From Hymenobacter sp. APR13 (GTDB lineage: Bacteria; Bacteroidota; Bacteroidia; Cytophagales; Hymenobacteraceae): DNA of 64,000 nt. A program made the translations under genes and the position numbers. Where the stretch lies: contig NZ_CP006587.1 of NCBI RefSeq assembly GCF_000737515.1, positions 372,001 through 436,000 on the forward strand, in the 5' to 3' direction. Below, piece after piece: positions 20,035-26,517 of this stretch; within the stretch, counting starts at the first letter, position 1; each line of letters starts with the position of its first letter. The notes under the pieces are model-generated. The model was not told the origin of the DNA and did not search any database. It worked only from the letters and a program-made list of their open reading frames with translations.

Positions 20035-20772
20035 TTACCACGGAATTTCACCCGTTACGGGGGTGTTTTCTTCACTGATAAACCGGCCCGTGGGGCCGTC
20101 GTCGCCTACCAGCACGTATTTGGCAATTCGTATCCCAGCCTCCTGCACGGTGCCGGTGCCGCGGTGGCCGTTGAGGTCGGTGGCCGTGAAGCCCGGGTCC
20201 ACGGCATTCACCTTGAAGGGCGTGTCGCGCAGCTCGTAGGCCAGCACGATGGTATACATGTGCAGCGCCGCCTTGGAGGCCGGATAGACGGCGCCCTTGT
20301 GGTGGTAGTATTTCCAGGCCGGGTCGCTGCTCAGCGTCAGCGAGGCACCGCTGGAGCCCACGTTGACGATGCGGGGCTGGGGAGCCGGGCGCAGCAAGTC
20401 GATAAAGGCCTGCGTGACCTGCACCACCCCGAACACGTTGGTGGCAAACACCTCCTGAAACGTGGCCACTGCGGCCCCCAACGCGGCTTGCGGCATCCCG
20501 CCGGTAATGGCGGCATTGTTGACGAGGGCGTCGAGCACCGGCGTTTTGCGGCCAATTTCGGCCCGGGCGGCCTGTACCGAATCGGCATTGGTGACGTCGA
20601 GCTGGATGGCTTCTACTTCGGAGAGGCCTTCGGCGTGGAGCTGCTGGGCGGCCTGCTGGCCCCGGGCCAGGTCGCGGCTGCCCAGAAAGACGTGGTAGCC
20701 CTGCCGGGCCAGCTGCCGGGCGGTTTCCAGGCCGATGCCTTTGTTGGCGCCGGTGATGAGGACGGTTTTCAT
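20035..20772 (-). CDS. Short-chain dehydrogenase/reductase under the TTGCCA-type operator
   Basis: 245 residues: ITGANKGIGLETARQLARQG, LVNNAAITGG, VGSSGASLTL and YPASKAALHMYT. It resembles carbonyl-reductase-like SDRs. A TTGCCA-TT-TGGCAA palindrome lies 22 nt upstream of GACCTTTG (20803-20796), the same arrangement as in front of the neighbouring Crp/Fnr gene, so that regulator probably controls this enzyme. Confidence 0.88.
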   Translation of the reverse strand: MKTVLITGANKGIGLETARQLARQGYHVFLGSRDLARGQQAAQQLHAEGLSEVEAIQLDVTNADSVQAARAEIGRKTPVLDALVNNAAITGGMPQAALGAAVATFQEVFATNVFGVVQVTQAFIDLLRPAPQPRIVNVGSSGASLTLSSDPAWKYYHHKGAVYPASKAALHMYTIVLAYELRDTPFKVNAVDPGFTATDLNGHRGTGTVQEAGIRIAKYVLVGDDGPTGRFISEENTPVTGEIPW

Positions 20773-20825
20773 GGTCGTTGCGGTTGGTTATGTCGCAAAG
20801 GTCCCCCGCCCGAAAAGCCCCGGAG

Positions 20826-20839
20826 TTGCCATTTGGCAA
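20826..20839. promoter_or_regulatory. Crp/Fnr operator copy 1 (SDR promoter)
   Basis: TTGCCA-TT-TGGCAA. Exactly 22 nt separate it from the -7-like box GACCTTTG of the SDR gene, placing its centre near -41, the class II activator position. Confidence 0.7.
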
Positions 20840-20847
20840 AAAGCGCG

Positions 20848-21417
20848 TCAGCGGATGTTGCGCCGAATCCGGCTCAGCGACGACTGCGTCATGCCCAGAA
20901 ACGAGGCCAGGTAAGACAGCGGAATCCGGTTGGCCAGCTGCGGGTAGTTGGCCAGAAACTCCCGGTAGCGGGTGGTGGCATCCTGGCTGACCATGGGGCT
21001 GATGCGCGCCAGCTTCTCGTGCAGGTGCCGGGTGGTCATCTGGTGCACCATCTCGCGCCAGCCCACGATGGTGTGGGCCAGCTCGTCCCAGTCAGGCTTG
21101 GTGAACACCAGCAGCCGGCAATCGGTCACAGCCTGCACGTACTCGGCGGAGGCCAGGCCGTCTTCCAGACCGCGCAGGTTGGTGGTCAGGTGGTGCTCGT
21201 CGATGAAGTTGCGGGTGATTTCCTGGCCCTGGTTGTTGTAGTAGCAGATGCGCAGCACGCCCTCCAGCAGAAACCCGACCCGCCGCGACACCTGCCCTGC
21301 CTCCAGAAAGTAGGCGTCGCGGGGCAGCGCCAGCGGAGTGGCCTTGCTGGCAATCAGGTCCAGCTGCCGCGGGTTGAGCGAGCCGAACTGCAGCAGGTAG
21401 GTAAAGAGTTCGTCCAT
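20848..21417 (-). CDS. Crp/Fnr family transcriptional regulator
   Basis: 189 residues. The cyclic-nucleotide-binding-like domain shows LPRDAYFLEAGQVSRRVGFL and GVLRICYYNNQGQEITRNF. The helix-turn-helix at the C-terminus reads IPLSYLASFLGMTQSSLSR. There are no Fnr-type iron-sulfur cysteines in the N-terminus. Its promoter carries the same palindrome as the adjacent SDR, suggesting autoregulation. TACCTTG ends five bases before ATG, so the mRNA may be leaderless. A truncated near-copy lies at 25825. Confidence 0.9.
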   Translation of the reverse strand: MDELFTYLLQFGSLNPRQLDLIASKATPLALPRDAYFLEAGQVSRRVGFLLEGVLRICYYNNQGQEITRNFIDEHHLTTNLRGLEDGLASAEYVQAVTDCRLLVFTKPDWDELAHTIVGWREMVHQMTTRHLHEKLARISPMVSQDATTRYREFLANYPQLANRIPLSYLASFLGMTQSSLSRIRRNIR

Positions 21418-21451
21418 GGGGGCAAGGTACGCGGGCGCACCGGGGCATCAG

Positions 21452-21465
21452 TTGCCATTTGGCAA
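21452..21465. promoter_or_regulatory. Crp/Fnr operator copy 2 (own promoter)
   Basis: TTGCCA-TT-TGGCAA, identical to the copy at 20826. It lies 22 nt upstream of TACCTTG (21429-21423) of the Crp/Fnr gene. Confidence 0.7.
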
Positions 21466-21599
21466 AAACGCTTTTGCGTGCCCGGCAGGTACCCGTACGC
21501 GACGATGCCGGCTACCCAGCCCGGCCGCATAGCCCGAAAATGCTGCTTGCGGATTGCTCCGTCCGCCTCGATTGAGCGCGCCCGCAGGAGCAGTGAAAT

Positions 21600-21974
21600 T
21601 TAGGGTAGCGGTACGTGCGTCGGCAATCCGGAGAGGCTGTCCAGGCGCTGCTGGTGCTGCAGGCCCCACGCTTTGAGCACCTCAATCACGGGGTCGAGCG
21701 AACGGGCATAGGGCAAGAGCTGGTAGTCCACGACTACCGGCGGGCCGGGCGAAACCGTGCGGACGATGAACTGGTGGGCCTCCAATTCCTTGAGCTCCTT
21801 GGCCAGCACCTTGGTGGAGATGCCCGGCACGCTGCGCTCCAGGCCACGAAAATGGCGGGTGCCCGTCTGCAGTGCCACGATGATTTGCAGCTTCCACTTG
21901 CCATTCACAACCAGCAGGGCGTGGCGTAGGGCGTGCATGGTCTGAGCGCAGGAGGTCAGGTCGGAGTTGGTCAT
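21600..21974 (-). CDS. HxlR family transcriptional regulator
   Basis: 124 residues, single winged helix. CAQTMHALRHALLVVNGKWKL and HFRGLERSVPGISTKVLAKEL are family signatures, and a conserved cysteine (Cys9) near the N-terminus is the redox or electrophile sensor in relatives such as HypR. It is divergent from a flavin reductase gene, with two palindromes in the gap, a common layout for an electrophile-responsive repressor and its target. Confidence 0.9.
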   Translation of the reverse strand: MTNSDLTSCAQTMHALRHALLVVNGKWKLQIIVALQTGTRHFRGLERSVPGISTKVLAKELKELEAHQFIVRTVSPGPPVVVDYQLLPYARSLDPVIEVLKAWGLQHQQRLDSLSGLPTHVPLP

Positions 21975-22010
21975 AGCAATAACGGCAAGATGAGGAGCGG
22001 TATACCCGCC

Positions 22011-22030
22011 TGATTACCCGCAGGTAATCA
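22011..22030. promoter_or_regulatory. HxlR operator, site 1
   Basis: TGATTACC-CGCA-GGTAATCA, a perfect 8-bp palindrome with a 4-nt spacer, 36 nt upstream of the hxlR-type start codon. A half-site ACGTAATCTG follows at about 22041-22050. Confidence 0.6.
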
Positions 22031-22082
22031 GGCTACCGCCACGTAATCTGTAGTGGGCGCAAGTTACAAACAAAGGCCGGGC

Positions 22083-22101
22083 TGATTACTTGAGGTAATC
22101 A
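22083..22101. promoter_or_regulatory. HxlR operator, site 2
   Basis: TGATTAC-TTGAG-GTAATCA, the same arms as site 1 with a 5-nt spacer; both sites are followed by GTACC or CTACC. It faces the flavin reductase gene. Confidence 0.6.
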
Positions 22102-22211
22102 GAGTACCATACCACCACGGGGCTACGCAGTGGCCGGGCAGTTGGCCCCGGCGGGCAGGCCCCGGGTGGCGGGCTCGTATTCTTCACTTTCTTCCCCCCT
22201 TCCCTACGTTT

Positions 22212-22808
22212 ATGCAGATTCTGCAAATCATTTCCAGCGCCCGCGGGGCCGAATCGTACAGCACCCGCCTCAGCCAGGGCATCATCGACAAGCTGCTCGC
22301 GGCGCACCCCGGCAGCACCGTGGTGGTGCGCAACGTGGCGACCCACCCGTTTCCCCACCTCGAAGAGGCGCACCTGCAGGCCTACTTCACGCCCGCCGAA
22401 GGCCGCTCGCCCGAGCAGCAGCAGGCCGTGCGCCACTCCGACGAAGCCATTGCCGAGGTGCTGGCGGCCGACGTCCTCGTACTGGGGGTGCCGTTCTACA
22501 ATTTCACCATTGCCTCGTCGCTCAAGGCGTGGCTCGACCACCTCACGCGGGCGGGCATCACGTTCCGCTACACCCCCACGGGTCCGGAAGGACTTATCAC
22601 AGGCAAGAAAGTGTACCTGGCCGTGGCCAGCGGCGGCATCTACTCCGCAGGACCGCAGCAGGCCGCTGATTTTGCCGTGCCCTACCTGCGCTGGATGCTG
22701 GGCTTCCTGGGCATGACCGATGTGACGGTGGCCCGGGCCGAGGGCGTCAAATTGCCGGAATTCCAGGCTACCGCCCTGCAAAAGGGCATTGAAAGCGTTG
22801 CGGTATAA
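22212..22808 (+). CDS. FMN-dependent NADH-azoreductase family flavoprotein
   Basis: 198 residues, matching AzoR length. Marks are MQILQIISSARGAESYSTRLS, VLGVPFYNFTIASSLKAWLDH and TGKKVYLAVASGGIYSAG. Such enzymes reduce quinones and azo compounds by two electrons using FMN. The divergent HxlR gene and paired operators point to induction by electrophiles or disulfide stress. A strong terminator follows. Confidence 0.9.
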   Translation: MQILQIISSARGAESYSTRLSQGIIDKLLAAHPGSTVVVRNVATHPFPHLEEAHLQAYFTPAEGRSPEQQQAVRHSDEAIAEVLAADVLVLGVPFYNFTIASSLKAWLDHLTRAGITFRYTPTGPEGLITGKKVYLAVASGGIYSAGPQQAADFAVPYLRWMLGFLGMTDVTVARAEGVKLPEFQATALQKGIESVAV

Positions 22809-22835
22809 GCCCGGCTGGCCGCACGGCCAGTAGAC

Positions 22836-22886
22836 GTCCCGGCAAGTGCCGGCCATTGGCCAGAGCACCTGCCGGGACTTTTTTTA
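22836..22886 (+). terminator. Terminator after azoreductase
   Basis: GTCCCGGCA pairs with TGCCGGGAC at 22869-22877, then a T tract. Confidence 0.85.
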
Positions 22887-23090
22887 GGCTGAAGAAGGCG
22901 GCTCTATCTCGCGCGGCAGCTTTCGAAGGCTCTTTGCGTGATATTCATACTTTTTAGTTTGAATGACATTTTTCGTCGTTGCCAATGGACTGGACCTTTG
23001 TAGAAATAATCTGAGTGGGCCGGTCAGCGCCTGCTACACGACGAAAGTCGCAGTGATTCTAGCAAGTAACCACAGTCAAACGCAACAACC

Positions 23091-24203
23091 ATGGCAACCA
23101 CAGAAATGAAAGCGCAGTCCGAGGAAGGGCAATCCTTCGAACGGGCGCAGGAAGCAGGCAATGAATCTTCTGCTTCCCCGAAGGCCCCAACCGGGGCGAT
23201 GAATACGATGAAGGCGGTGCAGCAGCACGCGTTTGGCGGGCCCGAGGTGCTGCGTTACGAGGATGCGCCGGTGCCCGAGCTCCAGCCGGGCGAAGTGCTG
23301 GTACGGGTGCACGCCGTCGGCATCAACCCGCCCGACTGGTACCTGCGCGACGGCTACAAGGCCCTGCCGGCCGAGTGGCGCCCGTCGGTCACCTTTCCCC
23401 TCATGCTGGGCACGGACGTGTCGGGCGTCGTGGCGGCCGTGGCCGAGGATGTGACCGACTTCGCGGTGGGCGAGGAGGTCTTCGGCATGGTCCGCTTCCC
23501 AAGCGTTGGCGAGAGCCGCGGCTATGCCGAGTACGTGGCCGCGCCCGCCACGGACCTGGCCCGCAAGCCGGCCAGCCTCAGCCACGTACAGGCCGCCGGG
23601 GCTCCCATGTCCGGGCTTACGGCGTGGCAGTATCTCATCGAGCTGGGGCACACGGCTCCCAACCCGTTTCAGCCGGAGGCGCACCGGCCGGTGCCGCTGC
23701 GGGGTAAGCGGGTGCTCGTGAACGGGGCCGCCGGCGGCGTGGGCCACCTGGCGGTGCAGCTGGCCAAGTGGCAGGGCGCCTACGTCATTGCCGTGGCTTC
23801 GGGCGGGCAGGAAACGCTGCTGCGCGAGCTGGGCGTGGATGAGTTCATCGACTACGCCAAAACCCCGGCCGAGGACGCAGTGCAGGACCTGGACGTTGTG
23901 CTCGATACCCTCAGTGGCCCCACCACAGGCCGTTTCCTGCGCACCCTTAAGCGGGGCGGCGCGCTGTTTCCGGTATTTCTGGGCTTTACGGATGCCGAGG
24001 AAGCGGCCCGGCGGGGCATCACCGTGTCGATGACGCAGGTGCGCTCCAGCGGCGCGCAGCTGGCCGAGCTCGGGCGCCTGCTGGCAGCCGGGACGGTGCG
24101 CGTGGTCATCGACAGCACGTACCCGCTGGCCGAGGCACGCCAGGCCCACGAGCGCGCCGCCCGCGGGCACATCCAGGGCAAAATCGTGCTGACGGTCGCC
24201 TAA
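23091..24203 (+). CDS. NAD(P)-dependent MDR alcohol dehydrogenase/quinone reductase-like protein
   Basis: 370 residues. After a polar 40-residue N-terminal extension comes the MDR core: VLRYEDAPVPELQPGEVLVRVHAVGINPPDWY, TDVSGVVAAVAEDVTDF and VNGAAGGVGHLAVQLAKWQG. No catalytic zinc ligands are evident. Met38 or Met41 would give a start without the extension. It belongs to the island of NADPH-dependent reductases; substrate unknown. The 280-bp gap before it has a terminator and AT-rich sequence only. Confidence 0.87.
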   Translation: MATTEMKAQSEEGQSFERAQEAGNESSASPKAPTGAMNTMKAVQQHAFGGPEVLRYEDAPVPELQPGEVLVRVHAVGINPPDWYLRDGYKALPAEWRPSVTFPLMLGTDVSGVVAAVAEDVTDFAVGEEVFGMVRFPSVGESRGYAEYVAAPATDLARKPASLSHVQAAGAPMSGLTAWQYLIELGHTAPNPFQPEAHRPVPLRGKRVLVNGAAGGVGHLAVQLAKWQGAYVIAVASGGQETLLRELGVDEFIDYAKTPAEDAVQDLDVVLDTLSGPTTGRFLRTLKRGGALFPVFLGFTDAEEAARRGITVSMTQVRSSGAQLAELGRLLAAGTVRVVIDSTYPLAEARQAHERAARGHIQGKIVLTVA

Positions 24204-24213
24204 GCCCACACGC

Positions 24214-24285
24214 GGTACCGATAATCTGCCAACCTCTCCTACTGCCCCAAAGCGGCTTCACAGGGGTTGGCAGCTTATCGGTACC
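24214..24285. repeat. Long inverted repeat between MDR and ABM genes
   Basis: Arms 24214-24234 and 24265-24285 (21 nt, one mismatch, outer end GGTACCGATAA) enclose a 30-nt loop. There is no T tract after it, so it is not a standard terminator. It may be an operator pair, an attenuator or a repeat element. Confidence 0.7.
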
Positions 24286-24309
24286 CTTCCCCTATCCAGT
24301 TCTACTCCG

Positions 24310-24630
24310 ATGCCTACTTCCGATAAAGTCGCCGAACGGCACCTGCTCGTCACCGTGCAAAGCCAGCCCGCGCACCGCGCCCGTGTGCAGGAAATCCTGC
24401 TTGAACTCGTGGGCCTGGTGCGCGCGGAGCCGGGCTGCATCTACTACAATATCTTTCAGCAAGCCGAGGCCCCCGATACGTTCCTGATTGCCGCCGCCTG
24501 GCTCGATGACGAAGCCATAGCGGCCCACCCGACGCCGCCGCAGTCGCGCCTGGTCGAGCAGCTGCTGCCGTTGCTGACCGCCCCCATGCAGGTGCTTCCT
24601 ATCCGGCGGGTGAGCGAGAACCCCGCTTAA
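24310..24630 (+). CDS. ABM-domain protein, putative quinol monooxygenase
   Basis: 106 residues: HLLVTVQSQPAHRARVQEIL, LVGLVRAEPGCIYYNIFQQ and FLIAAAWLDDEAIAAH. This follows the YgiN pattern. It lies 106 nt behind the MDR gene with a long inverted repeat between them, and is followed by a terminator. Likely function is quinone or quinol turnover with the reductases nearby. Confidence 0.83.
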   Translation: MPTSDKVAERHLLVTVQSQPAHRARVQEILLELVGLVRAEPGCIYYNIFQQAEAPDTFLIAAAWLDDEAIAAHPTPPQSRLVEQLLPLLTAPMQVLPIRRVSENPA

Positions 24631-24651
24631 ACCACACCACTCGCAGCCAGG

Positions 24652-24702
24652 GCCCGGCTGGCTGGTACCGGACGTATCCGGTGCCGGCCAGTCGGGCTTT
24701 TG
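24652..24702 (+). terminator. Terminator after ABM gene
   Basis: GCCCGGCTGGCTGGTACCGGA and TCCGGTGCCGGCCAGTCGGGC fold into a long stem followed by TTTT. Confidence 0.7.
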
Positions 24703-24710
24703 CCGGCTGA

Positions 24711-24742
24711 GCAGCTTGGCCAGTTGGGCAGCTTGGCCAGTT
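24711..24742 (+). repeat. Tandem 17-bp-period repeat upstream of AraC
   Basis: GCAGCTTGGCCAGTT is at 24711-24725 and 24728-24742. The copies contain TTGGCCA and may be regulatory half-sites. Confidence 0.4.
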
Positions 24743-24793
24743 AGGCGGTACTGGGTTTTTGCCTTGCTGTCAATGCGCTCTACTTGATTTTCG

Positions 24794-24801
24794 TACTTTT
24801 G
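24794..24801 (+). promoter_or_regulatory. TACTTTTG -7 box, four bases before AraC start
   Basis: Exact TAnnTTTG followed by CCGC and the ATG at 24806, predicting a leaderless transcript. Confidence 0.5.
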
Positions 24802-24805
24802 CCGC

Positions 24806-25702
24806 ATGATGAACGCTGTTGCCAGCAGGCCGGCTCCGCGCCCCACCCGGGAGTTGAAACTGAAAGGGTTCAAAGTGTACGCGGTGGACCGCCCGTGCAC
24901 CACCCCGCCCTACTTCACCCGGCGCGACTACTATAAGGTCATGCTGCTCACGACCCGGGCCCGGCTGCACTACGGCCACCAGCACTGGGACCTCGACGGC
25001 ACGTACCTGCTGTTCTTCAACCCGCACATTCCGTATTCGCTGGAAATGCGCGGTGACCTCCGGCACGGCTTCATCAGCCTCTTTACCGAGGAGTTTATCA
25101 CCTCGCTCGACCGGTCGGAAAGCCTCCCCCAGTCGCCCCTTTTCAAAATCGGGAGCCCGCCGCTCTACCCGCTCGGCGAGACGCAGATACCCTTCATGAC
25201 CAGTATCTTCCAGAAGATGCTGACCGCGCAGGAAGGTGATTATCCCTTCAAGGCCGAGCTGATTCGCACCTACCTGCAACTTGCCATTCACGAGGCCCTG
25301 CACCGGCAGCCCGCCCACACCCTGGTCCAAGCGCACACGGCCGCCTCGCGCCTGGCGGCCCGGTTTTTGGACGTGCTGGAGCAGCAGTTTCCGGTAGAAA
25401 CGCCCGAGCAGACGCTGGAGCTGAAAACGGCCCAGGAGTTTGCCGACCGGCTGGCCGTGCACGTTAACCACCTCAACAAGGCCGTGAAAGAGGTAACCGG
25501 CAAGCCCACCAGCGCGCACATCACCGCCCGCCTCACCGACGAGGCGAAGGCTCTGTTGCAGCACACCACCTGGAGCGTGGCCGAAATTTCCACCTGCCTG
25601 GGCTTTGCCTACCCCACCTACTTCAACAACTTTTTCAAGAAGCAGACCAGCACTACCCCGCTGGCCTACCGCAAGGGGACCGGGGCGGTGCTACCGAGCT
25701 AG
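24806..25702 (+). CDS. AraC family transcriptional regulator
   Basis: 298 residues. The sensor half includes TPPYFTRRDYYKVMLLTTRARLHYG. The DNA-binding half includes FADRLAVHVNHLNKAVKEVTG and CLGFAYPTYFNNFFKKQTS. It is a close paralogue of the regulator at 11329 and shares the four-base distance between a TAnnTTTG box and the ATG. A second ATG follows directly (24809). Confidence 0.9.
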   Translation: MMNAVASRPAPRPTRELKLKGFKVYAVDRPCTTPPYFTRRDYYKVMLLTTRARLHYGHQHWDLDGTYLLFFNPHIPYSLEMRGDLRHGFISLFTEEFITSLDRSESLPQSPLFKIGSPPLYPLGETQIPFMTSIFQKMLTAQEGDYPFKAELIRTYLQLAIHEALHRQPAHTLVQAHTAASRLAARFLDVLEQQFPVETPEQTLELKTAQEFADRLAVHVNHLNKAVKEVTGKPTSAHITARLTDEAKALLQHTTWSVAEISTCLGFAYPTYFNNFFKKQTSTTPLAYRKGTGAVLPS

Positions 25703-25776
25703 CCAGCCACTGCGCTCCGTAATGCGTGAGCCTGGAAAACGCCTTTGAGCAACGTTTTCAGCCGCTAAATTCCTTT

Positions 25777-25790
25777 TTACCAAATGGCAA
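25777..25790. promoter_or_regulatory. Crp/Fnr operator copy 3 (in front of the truncated paralogue)
   Basis: TTACCA-AA-TGGCAA, one mismatch to the other copies and read on the opposite strand. Again exactly 22 nt precede TACCTTG (25813-25819). Confidence 0.65.
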
Positions 25791-25824
25791 GCCGTGCTTA
25801 CCCATGCCCGCGTACCTTGTCCTG

Positions 25825-26115
25825 ATGGATGACTTTTTCGCCTATCTGCTGCAGTTTGGCTCGCTCAATCAACACCAACTGGATCTGATTGCCCGCAAGA
25901 CCACGCCGCTATCCTTACCGAAGGAAGCCTATTTTCTGGAAGCAGGCCAGGTGTCGCGGCGGGTCGGGTTTCTGCTGGAGGGCGTGCTGCGGATTTGCTA
26001 TTACGACAAGCAGGGCCGGGAAATCACCCGCAACTTCATCGACGAGCATCACCTGACCACCAACCTGTGCGGTCTGGAAGCCGGTTTGGCGTCCGCCGAG
26101 CGTGCGCAGACCTTG
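25825..26115 (+). pseudogene. Truncated Crp/Fnr regulator, paralogue of 20848-21417
   Basis: From ATG 25825 the product MDDFFAYLLQFGSLNQHQLD follows the intact regulator almost residue for residue up to about residue 97 (ASAERAQTLTV), then diverges. The helix-turn-helix is absent. The frame stays open to 26331, but the added residues look like translated non-coding DNA. The promoter, operator and start spacing are intact, so a shortened ligand-domain protein might still be made. It looks like a duplication broken by recombination near 26115. Confidence 0.75.
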
Positions 26116-26388
26116 ACCGTTTTCGGCCGGTTACAAAGAGGGATTGCCGCAGCAGTACCGGTCCTTGCTTCCAGGTTATTGAAGAAACGTGACTTGGCTT
26201 TAAGCGCTGAATCTAAAGCGAATGAGCAAGCCAAGTGGTTCGCTTGTTTGGTTTTCGCTTTGGTTACCATCATAAACACACGACCCTGGCAATTTAGCCT
26301 ACCCGAAGCGGCATTTAGAGGTATGCATTAACAGTACTTGATGTTCGTTAGCAATTGATGCTACACGTATCGAAACTCATACAATAGT
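26116..26388. other. Region after the truncated regulator, no gene recognised
   Basis: The open frame continuing from the pseudogene runs through here to 26331 without family features. Base composition is less GC-rich than in the neighbours. Confidence 0.4.
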
Positions 26389-26434
26389 TAAAAAAAATAC
26401 GCCAACAACCTGTTAATAAGGATGTTGGCGTATT
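26389..26434 (-). terminator. Terminator of tRNA-Ile2
   Basis: AATACGCCAACA (26396-26407) pairs with TGTTGGCGTATT (26423-26434); on the minus strand an eight-T run follows. Confidence 0.85.
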
Positions 26435-26440
26435 CGCCTT

Positions 26441-26517
26441 TGGTGGGCCCAACTGGAATCGAACCAGTGACCTGCTGATTATGAGTCAGCTGCTCTAACC
26501 GATTGAGCTATAGGCCC
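26441..26517 (-). tRNA. tRNA-Ile2 (CAU, lysidine type), CCA encoded
   Basis: The minus strand folds into a full cloverleaf beginning GGGCCTATAGCTCAATC, with anticodon arm GCTGA-CTCATAA-TCAGC and T arm ending GTTGGGCCCACCA. The anticodon CAU could be Met or Ile. C4-G69 and C5-G68 in the acceptor stem are the pairs that TilS uses to select tRNA-Ile2, and the arm resembles E. coli ileX, so Ile2 is preferred. Automated tools may label it tRNA-Met. Confidence 0.85.

What the first reader, a model, noticed from the sequence alone, without database searches (positions are those of the whole stretch)
20826..25819. A Crp/Fnr regulon marked by TTGCCA-TT-TGGCAA at a fixed 22-nt distance from the -7 box
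The palindrome occurs at 20826-20839 (SDR), 21452-21465 (Crp/Fnr gene) and, with one mismatch, at 25777-25790 (truncated Crp/Fnr copy). In each case exactly 22 nt separate it from GACCTTTG, TACCTTG and TACCTTG. None has a -33 TTG. The centre would be near -41, the class II position for Crp-type activators. This predicts an autoregulated activator that also controls the SDR, with an operator unlike TGTGA-N6-TCACA.
Basis: partly seen in the sequence, partly recalled or inferred. Interest (0 to 1): 0.85.

Follow-up and report, generated by a model that had tools for sequence, protein, structure and literature searches.

The report
Self-regulating Crp/Fnr switch, one-residue code
A small regulator gene in this bacterium very probably switches on itself and the enzyme gene next to it through a fixed DNA mark, and across its relatives a single amino acid in the regulator goes hand in hand with which version of the mark is used.

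Summary
TTGCCA-N2-TGGCAA stands at 20826, 21452 and (one mismatch) 25777, each 22 nt before a Bacteroidota -7 box. A comparison of 272 related regulator genes supports most of the reading. The 20848-21417 product is a Crp/Fnr-fold regulator without a wing. Relatives across Bacteroidota keep the circuit: one site before the regulator's own ATG, one just after its stop, before a neighbouring gene that is usually an oxidoreductase. With the -12..-5 box position published for F. psychrophilum, the operator spans -48..-35, centre -41.5 (class II). The regulator's ATG then falls on +1, which predicts a leaderless mRNA. Corrections: it is not a broad regulon (one matching promoter in the genome, the self site, and a relic that is not independent); the operator has the ordinary FNR layout (5-4-5) with altered bases; activation is inferred. 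Bonus: a nearly perfect one-residue code at the CRP-181/FNR-209 position. Ser/Thr go with TTGYC, Gln with TTACC, Glu with TTGAY. Sixteen genomes hold at least two types, with matching operators apart from three odd sites. A correlation at this residue was already published for a few HcpR2 proteins. I judge it a new variant of a known kind, directly testable.

The parts
20848..21417 (-). Crp/Fnr-fold regulator, 189 aa, no wing
20881..20883 (-). Ser179 codon, equivalent of CRP Glu181 and FNR Glu209
   Evidence: Profile alignment to FNR; structural end points model 189 = CRP 191 (1g6n) and = FNR 219, position 179 inferred from these without a gap; mutual information with operator base 0.960 of 0.995 bits
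21452..21465 (-). Operator of the regulator's own promoter, TTGCCAAATGGCAA
   Evidence: upstream of 86 ortholog-like proteins 65 operator-like sites were counted, 64 at -47..-51 of the start, 50 of them at -48
21422..21429 (-). -7 box TACCTTGC, 4 nt before the ATG; predicts a leaderless mRNA
   Evidence: sequence; TAnnTTGY and TAnnTTTG boxes lie at -12..-5 in F. psychrophilum (PMC9723704, passages)
20826..20839 (-). Operator of the SDR promoter, 8 nt after the regulator's stop
20796..20803 (-). -7 box GACCTTTG of the SDR promoter
20035..20772 (-). Target: short-chain dehydrogenase/reductase, 245 aa
   Evidence: Pfam adh_short 2.5e-43
25777..25790 (+). Relic operator TTACCAAATGGCAA, one half-site altered
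25813..25820 (+). Relic -7 box TACCTTGT
   Evidence: sequence
25825..26118 (+). Truncated copy of the regulator, codons 1-98, without the DNA-binding part
   Evidence: 81% protein identity over residues 1-98; DNA homology from operator to codon 98 only

Best explanation
The locus is a compact self-regulating switch. The wingless Crp/Fnr-type protein binds as a dimer to TTGCCA-N2-TGGCAA. One copy lies at -48..-35 of its own promoter, whose ATG is predicted to be +1 (leaderless mRNA). A second copy lies 8 nt behind its stop codon at the same position of the SDR promoter. Both promoters lack a -33 TTG and the SDR -7 box lacks the leading T, so RNA polymerase is probably recruited by contact with the regulator at -41.5 (class II). 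An unknown signal, perhaps an electrophile or redox stress in view of the oxidoreductase targets and Cys100, would raise the SDR and, by feedback, the regulator. Residue 179 (Ser here) goes with the operator version. Shown by sequence: sites, spacing, conservation, code. Inferred: binding, activation, start sites, signal.
For: Both sites are kept in relatives from Hymenobacter to Flavobacterium (L172), Chryseobacterium (L173), Pedobacter (L180) and Ginsengibacter (L174). Box offsets 25-27 dominate 181 palindromes. Half-sites beside Ser proteins: 152 of 156 begin TTG; beside Gln proteins 150 of 156 begin TTA; beside Glu proteins 40 of 42 are TTGAC or TTGAT. Operator base against each alignment column of 122 proteins: residue 179 scores 0.960 of 0.995 bits, next best 0.571. 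A protein-blind scan of 101 genus genomes gave 23 TTGCC-type places (1 in the reversed control) and 15 TTACC-type (0): of 22 TTGCC places read, 19 lie beside a Ser/Thr-type regulator and none beside a Gln type; of 15 TTACC places, 10 lie beside a Gln type and none beside a Ser/Thr type. Both sites of a locus have the same class in 35 of 37 loci. Own genome: the paralogue L003 is Glu-type and has TTGATATAGATCAA 22 nt before CAACTTTG.
Against: No binding, expression or start-site data exist here. Many family members show no site by these criteria: 7 of 63 Ser, 20 of 79 Gln, 3 of 14 Thr, 52 of 73 Glu and 9 of 9 Arg proteins. 29 of 66 self-promoter sites had no strict TAnnTTTG or TAnnTTGY box. The number of independent Ser/Gln changes is small: in the first tree 3 supported pairs, p 0.25; in the second 5 supported pairs, operator follows in 4.9 on average, median p 0.0625, the best reachable with five. 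Exceptions exist: TTTAC with PTQLSR, TTCAC or TTAAC halves with some PQSLSR, and hybrid sites at L102, L124, L136. Seven of 37 blind-scan places read had no regulator within the fetched flanks.
Confidence: 0.82

Rival explanations
1. Same binding sites, but the regulator represses: it covers the upstream promoter region and a signal releases it.
For: Autoregulation next to one target is typical of local repressors (general knowledge); no expression data were available.
Against: Centre at -41.5 at both promoters (from the box position), no conserved -33 TTG in the spacers of 42 Ser-type target promoters (at most 9 of 42 at any one position; 5 of 52 for Gln-type), and a target -7 box whose first base is G in 50% of those 42.
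Confidence: 0.14
2. The palindromes are hairpin terminators or members of a repeat family, not operators.
For: Nine of 12 other fetched places with the 14-mer (up to 1 mismatch) in the own genome are hairpins, in one measured case with 19-nt perfect arms.
Against: The three sites of the finding lack the long arms and a following T-run and are tied to a -7 box; the class follows the neighbouring regulator's residue 179.
Confidence: 0.02
3. Another regulator nearby (HxlR-type 21600-21974 or AraC-type 24806-25702) owns the sites.
For: Both lie within 5 kb.
Against: The site follows Crp/Fnr homologues across many genomes, and its bases follow their recognition helix; the HxlR neighbourhood has its own different repeats.
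Confidence: 0.02

Closest known systems
FNR/DNR/HcpR1-type sites TTGAT/C-N4-A/GTCAA (Crp/Fnr superfamily)
   Same: Fold, recognition helix ending in Ser-Arg, 14-bp operator of 5-4-5 layout beginning TT and ending AA (motifs as given in PMC1274295)
   Different: Operator bases 3-5 differ (TTGCC, or TTACC in relatives); residue 209 equivalent is Ser or Gln, not Glu; no iron-sulphur cysteine cluster; no wing
HcpR2 with Ser or Gln at position 181 (Rodionov et al. 2005, PMC1274295; passages and section 8 seen)
   Same: A correlation between residue 181 of Crp/Fnr proteins and operator bases, including Ser and Gln variants, was described there
   Different: There three species of one regulator of hcp; here many genomes, other targets, a fixed promoter geometry, and one class per paralogue inside single cells
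E. coli CRP at class II promoters
   Different: CRP site is TGTGA-N6-TCACA; the cAMP contact Arg82 is not kept; local circuit of two promoters, not a global regulon

Membership tests
Crp/Fnr superfamily | N-terminal cyclic-nucleotide-type beta roll | tested here: met
   Pfam PF00027 2.8e-07; model
Crp/Fnr superfamily | C-terminal helix-turn-helix with the recognition helix of CRP/FNR | tested here: met
Crp/Fnr superfamily | Palindromic dimer operator | tested here: met
   by sequence only; binding not tested
FNR proper (oxygen sensor) | N-terminal cysteine cluster for 4Fe-4S (recalled) | tested here: not met
   The window protein has only Cys58 and Cys100, both in strands of the beta roll
CRP proper (cAMP receptor) | cAMP contacts, Arg82 above all (recalled) | tested here: not met
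   Profile alignment puts Ala89 opposite Arg82; none of the 12 aligned rows has Arg in the three residues before Glu92
CRP proper (cAMP receptor) | Operator TGTGA-N6-TCACA | tested here: not met
   Conserved operator is TTGYC/TTACC in 5-4-5 layout
HcpR/HcpR2 | Regulates hcp, next to the gene | tested here: inconclusive
   The window neighbour is an SDR and none of nine proteins scanned nearby is annotated as hcp; no search for hcp itself was made
Class II activator promoter | Operator centred near -41.5 | tested here: met
   From box position only: operator -48..-35 if the box is at -12..-5; start sites not measured
Class II activator promoter | Regulator contacts RNA polymerase and activates | not testable with these tools
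   needs in vitro transcription

The most novel reading that the evidence does not exclude
Across Bacteroidota a wingless Crp/Fnr subfamily runs many private regulator-oxidoreductase switches at one fixed promoter geometry, and a single residue (CRP-181 equivalent: Glu, Ser/Thr or Gln) is enough to set the operator version and so keeps paralogous switches in one cell from crossing, while the regulator itself is made from a leaderless mRNA.
Probability: 0.5. Interest if true: 0.7.

Novelty: new variant of a known kind. Interest (0 to 1): 0.62.

Why it matters
The ligands and sites of the many Crp/Fnr paralogues in Bacteroidota are mostly unknown (general knowledge). The rule found here names operator, promoter and first target for a large share of the Ser- and Gln-type ones from sequence alone. 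It also gives a natural one-residue specificity switch with ready-made test pairs: related regulators with Ser and with Gln, and paralogues of both kinds in one cell. The predicted leaderless mRNA of the regulator would be unusual: 5.5% leaderless mRNAs are reported in F. psychrophilum (PMC9723704) and about 3.7% of leaders under 10 nt in B. thetaiotaomicron (PMC7366714), passages seen.

Tried and rejected
Rejected: a broad regulon. Rejected: the other palindromes of the genome as operators (9 of 12 fetched are hairpins, 3 have no box; 11 of the 23 other places were not read). Rejected: the truncated copy as independent support. Considered and left open: a thiol sensor (Cys100 in 78 of 80, Cys58 in 72 of 80 ortholog-like proteins).

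Led nowhere: a plasmid search with the tail of the truncated copy (no match). Ten literature searches ran; two returned no paper. None of the listings shows a paper on these operators; PMC1274295 (listed) bears on the code, PMC9723704 and PMC7366714 on promoters. I saw passages of all three and section 8 of the first. The library lacks most subscription papers. The first tree warned of joined long branches, so the rows of five loci were dropped.

Limits of the counts: homologues came from searches seeded with members of the family; operators were accepted only with TT at the start, AA at the end, at least 5 of 7 complementary pairs and a box at offset 25-27, so the layout is selected but bases 3-5 are not. 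For the trees and the column test a C at base 5 or its partner was also required. Sixteen loci (palindrome loci and duplicates, the relic L002 and L013 among them) were left out of the 272-protein set, and proteins with identical last 80 residues were counted once. 'Ortholog-like' means score at least 195: 80 proteins (those with a typed operator), 86.
Full report
OBSERVATION. The palindrome alone is not unusual (5 in the window with up to 2 mismatches, 4.16 expected). The combination with spacing and -7 box is: one place in the 5.0-Mb genome, none for the reversed pattern. That one place is the SDR promoter; the self promoter has CTTG instead of TTTG and so escapes that pattern.

OTHER PALINDROMES IN THE GENOME. 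One search found 26 places with up to one mismatch, against 6 for the reversed pattern. Three are those of the finding. Of the other 23, 12 were fetched. Nine of these are hairpins of the form GGC-TTGCCA-N2-TGGCAA-GCC with longer arms, most with AATCCG-rich flanks (arms of 19 nt in L007). Three (L015, L016, L018) have neither such arms nor a box at the right place. Eleven were not read.

THE CIRCUIT IN RELATIVES. Homologues were sought in the genus (37 of 101 genomes at 1e-20), family (84 of 120 at 1e-15), order (46 of 194 at 1e-20 with another query), class (98 of 295 at 1e-15) and phylum (25 of 395 at 1e-30 with a Chryseobacterium query), the own genome counted in each; 30 named loci came. 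Loci were held for part of the matches. Deduplicated, they gave 272 regulator ORFs. Around them 181 palindromes with at least 6 of 7 pairs put TTTG, CTTG or ATTG at offset 25, 26 or 27 in 19, 99 and 13 cases; no other offset has more than 8. Upstream of 86 ortholog-like proteins 65 operator-like sites were counted: 64 start within -47..-51 of the start codon, 50 of them at -48; shuffled sequence gives 0.755 in all. A second site follows the stop by about 6-12 nt in most of the orthologues listed.

GEOMETRY. In F. psychrophilum TAnnTTTG and TAnnTTGY boxes occupy -12 to -5 (PMC9723704, passages). This places the operators at -48..-35, centre -41.5, at both promoters of the window. In the self promoter the A of the ATG is then +1. 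The same paper gives 5.5% leaderless mRNAs; PMC7366714 (passages) gives about 3.7% of leaders under 10 nt in B. thetaiotaomicron. Strict boxes were found at 37 of 66 self sites, 23 of them exactly 22 nt after the operator and 4 nt before the start codon (one of the 37 stood at 13 nt, probably by chance); the other 29 had no strict box. At target promoters no TTG stands at a fixed place between operator and box: at most 9 of 42 (Ser type) and 5 of 52 (Gln type) at any one position.

THE CODE. Half-sites beside regulators, by residue 179 equivalent: Ser (56 of 63 proteins with a site) TTGCC 119, TTGTC 32, others 5. Thr (11 of 14) TTGCC 13, TTGTC 4, TTTAC 6, TTACC 1. Gln (59 of 79) TTACC 128, TTAAC 12, TTATC 8, TTCAC 6, two others. 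Glu (21 of 73) TTGAC 21, TTGAT 19, TTATC 2. Tyr (4 of 8) TTGCC 8. Arg 0 of 9. The remaining 26 proteins (no helix read, Val, His, Phe, Pro, Ala, Lys) gave mixed sites or none. Among 122 non-Glu proteins, residue 179 carries 0.960 of the 0.995 bits of the operator base; the next column carries 0.571. In 80 ortholog-like proteins T177, S180, L181, S182, R183 and R185 do not vary and I184 is kept in 79. Both sites of one locus agree in 35 of 37.

BLIND TEST. Patterns without any protein in 101 genus genomes: TTGCC type 23 places, control 1; TTACC type 15 places, control 0. Of 22 TTGCC places read, 19 lie beside a Ser/Thr-type regulator and 3 beside none. The 23rd (L322) lies before the start of a regulator gene whose helix was not read. 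Of 15 TTACC places, 10 lie near a Gln type, 1 near a homologue whose helix was not read, and 4 near none. 'None' means within the flanks of about 1.5 kb. No place lies beside a regulator read as the other class.

INDEPENDENCE. On a tree without the helix-turn-helix, residue and operator agree in 116 of 117: residue changes 7, operator changes 8, 3 supported independent pairs, p 0.25. With Glu and other types added and the rows of five long-branched loci dropped, they agree in 123 of 125: residue changes 5, operator 7, five supported pairs, the operator follows in 4.9 on average, median p 0.0625 (range to 0.125), the floor for five. Sixteen of 124 genomes (by source title) hold two or more of the Ser/Thr, Gln and Glu classes; judged by the first site listed for each protein they match, apart from L133 in G014 and L270 in G290 and one imperfect half-site of L112 in G286. 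The window's own genome is one of the sixteen: Ser-type with TTGCC and Glu-type L003 with TTGAT.

TARGETS. Of 58 first genes after the site, hand-picked for variety from the list, 36 match SDR, 10 aldo-keto reductase, 1 nitroreductase, 4 polyketide-cyclase-like and 1 adenylosuccinate synthetase (which lists 25 families). The shares are therefore not an unbiased census.

MECHANISM. Binding by the neighbour regulator is the only reading I found that explains the code. Activation is the likelier sign: class II place, no -33 TTG, weak target -7 box. The signal is unknown. cAMP is unlikely (Arg82 not kept) and an FNR-type cluster is excluded by lack of cysteines. Cys100 (78 of 80) could sense thiol-reactive compounds, which is speculation.

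NOVELTY. Rodionov et al. 2005 (PMC1274295, passages, section 8) reported that residues 180 and 181 of Crp/Fnr proteins correlate with operator bases, including Ser and Gln at 181 in three HcpR2 proteins. Classical CAP work on residue 181 is recalled only. So the principle is known. New here, as far as ten searches of an open-access library show, are the scale, the explicit letters, the fixed promoter architecture with a predicted leaderless regulator mRNA, and the coexistence of classes in one cell.

Noticed in passing
22011-22030 and 22083-22101: Two near-identical inverted repeats TGATTAC..GTAATCA, 71-72 nt apart, in the divergent region between an HxlR-type regulator (21600-21974, minus) and a flavodoxin-fold gene (22212-22808, plus): probable HxlR operators.
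   Followed up: partly
L004, L007-L012, L014, L017 (same genome, outside the window): A family of long hairpins GGC-TTGCCA-N2-TGGCAA-GCC, most with AATCCG-rich flanks; looks like a repeat element or two-way terminator and mimics the operator.
   Followed up: partly
25704-26517: Synteny with the close relative G006 stops at 25704, just before the truncated regulator copy, which is followed by a tRNA-Met gene (26441-26517, minus); a likely insertion or rearrangement spot.
   Followed up: partly
L034/L340 and L322 (other genomes of the genus): Other regulator starts with a self operator: L034/L340 is truncated near residue 93, L322 was only read at its start. Repeated decay of duplicates, or something selected, is open.
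   Followed up: partly
L339 9457-11960: The relative G006 carries about 2.5 kb of extra DNA between the Crp/Fnr gene and the HxlR gene that the window lacks.
   Followed up: no
L217 (G934), L131, L241, L261, L110, L112: A Pro variant (QPSLSR) has TTCAC..GTGAA, and some PQSLSR or QQSLSR proteins have mixed TTAAC/TTCAC halves: further operator classes.
   Followed up: no
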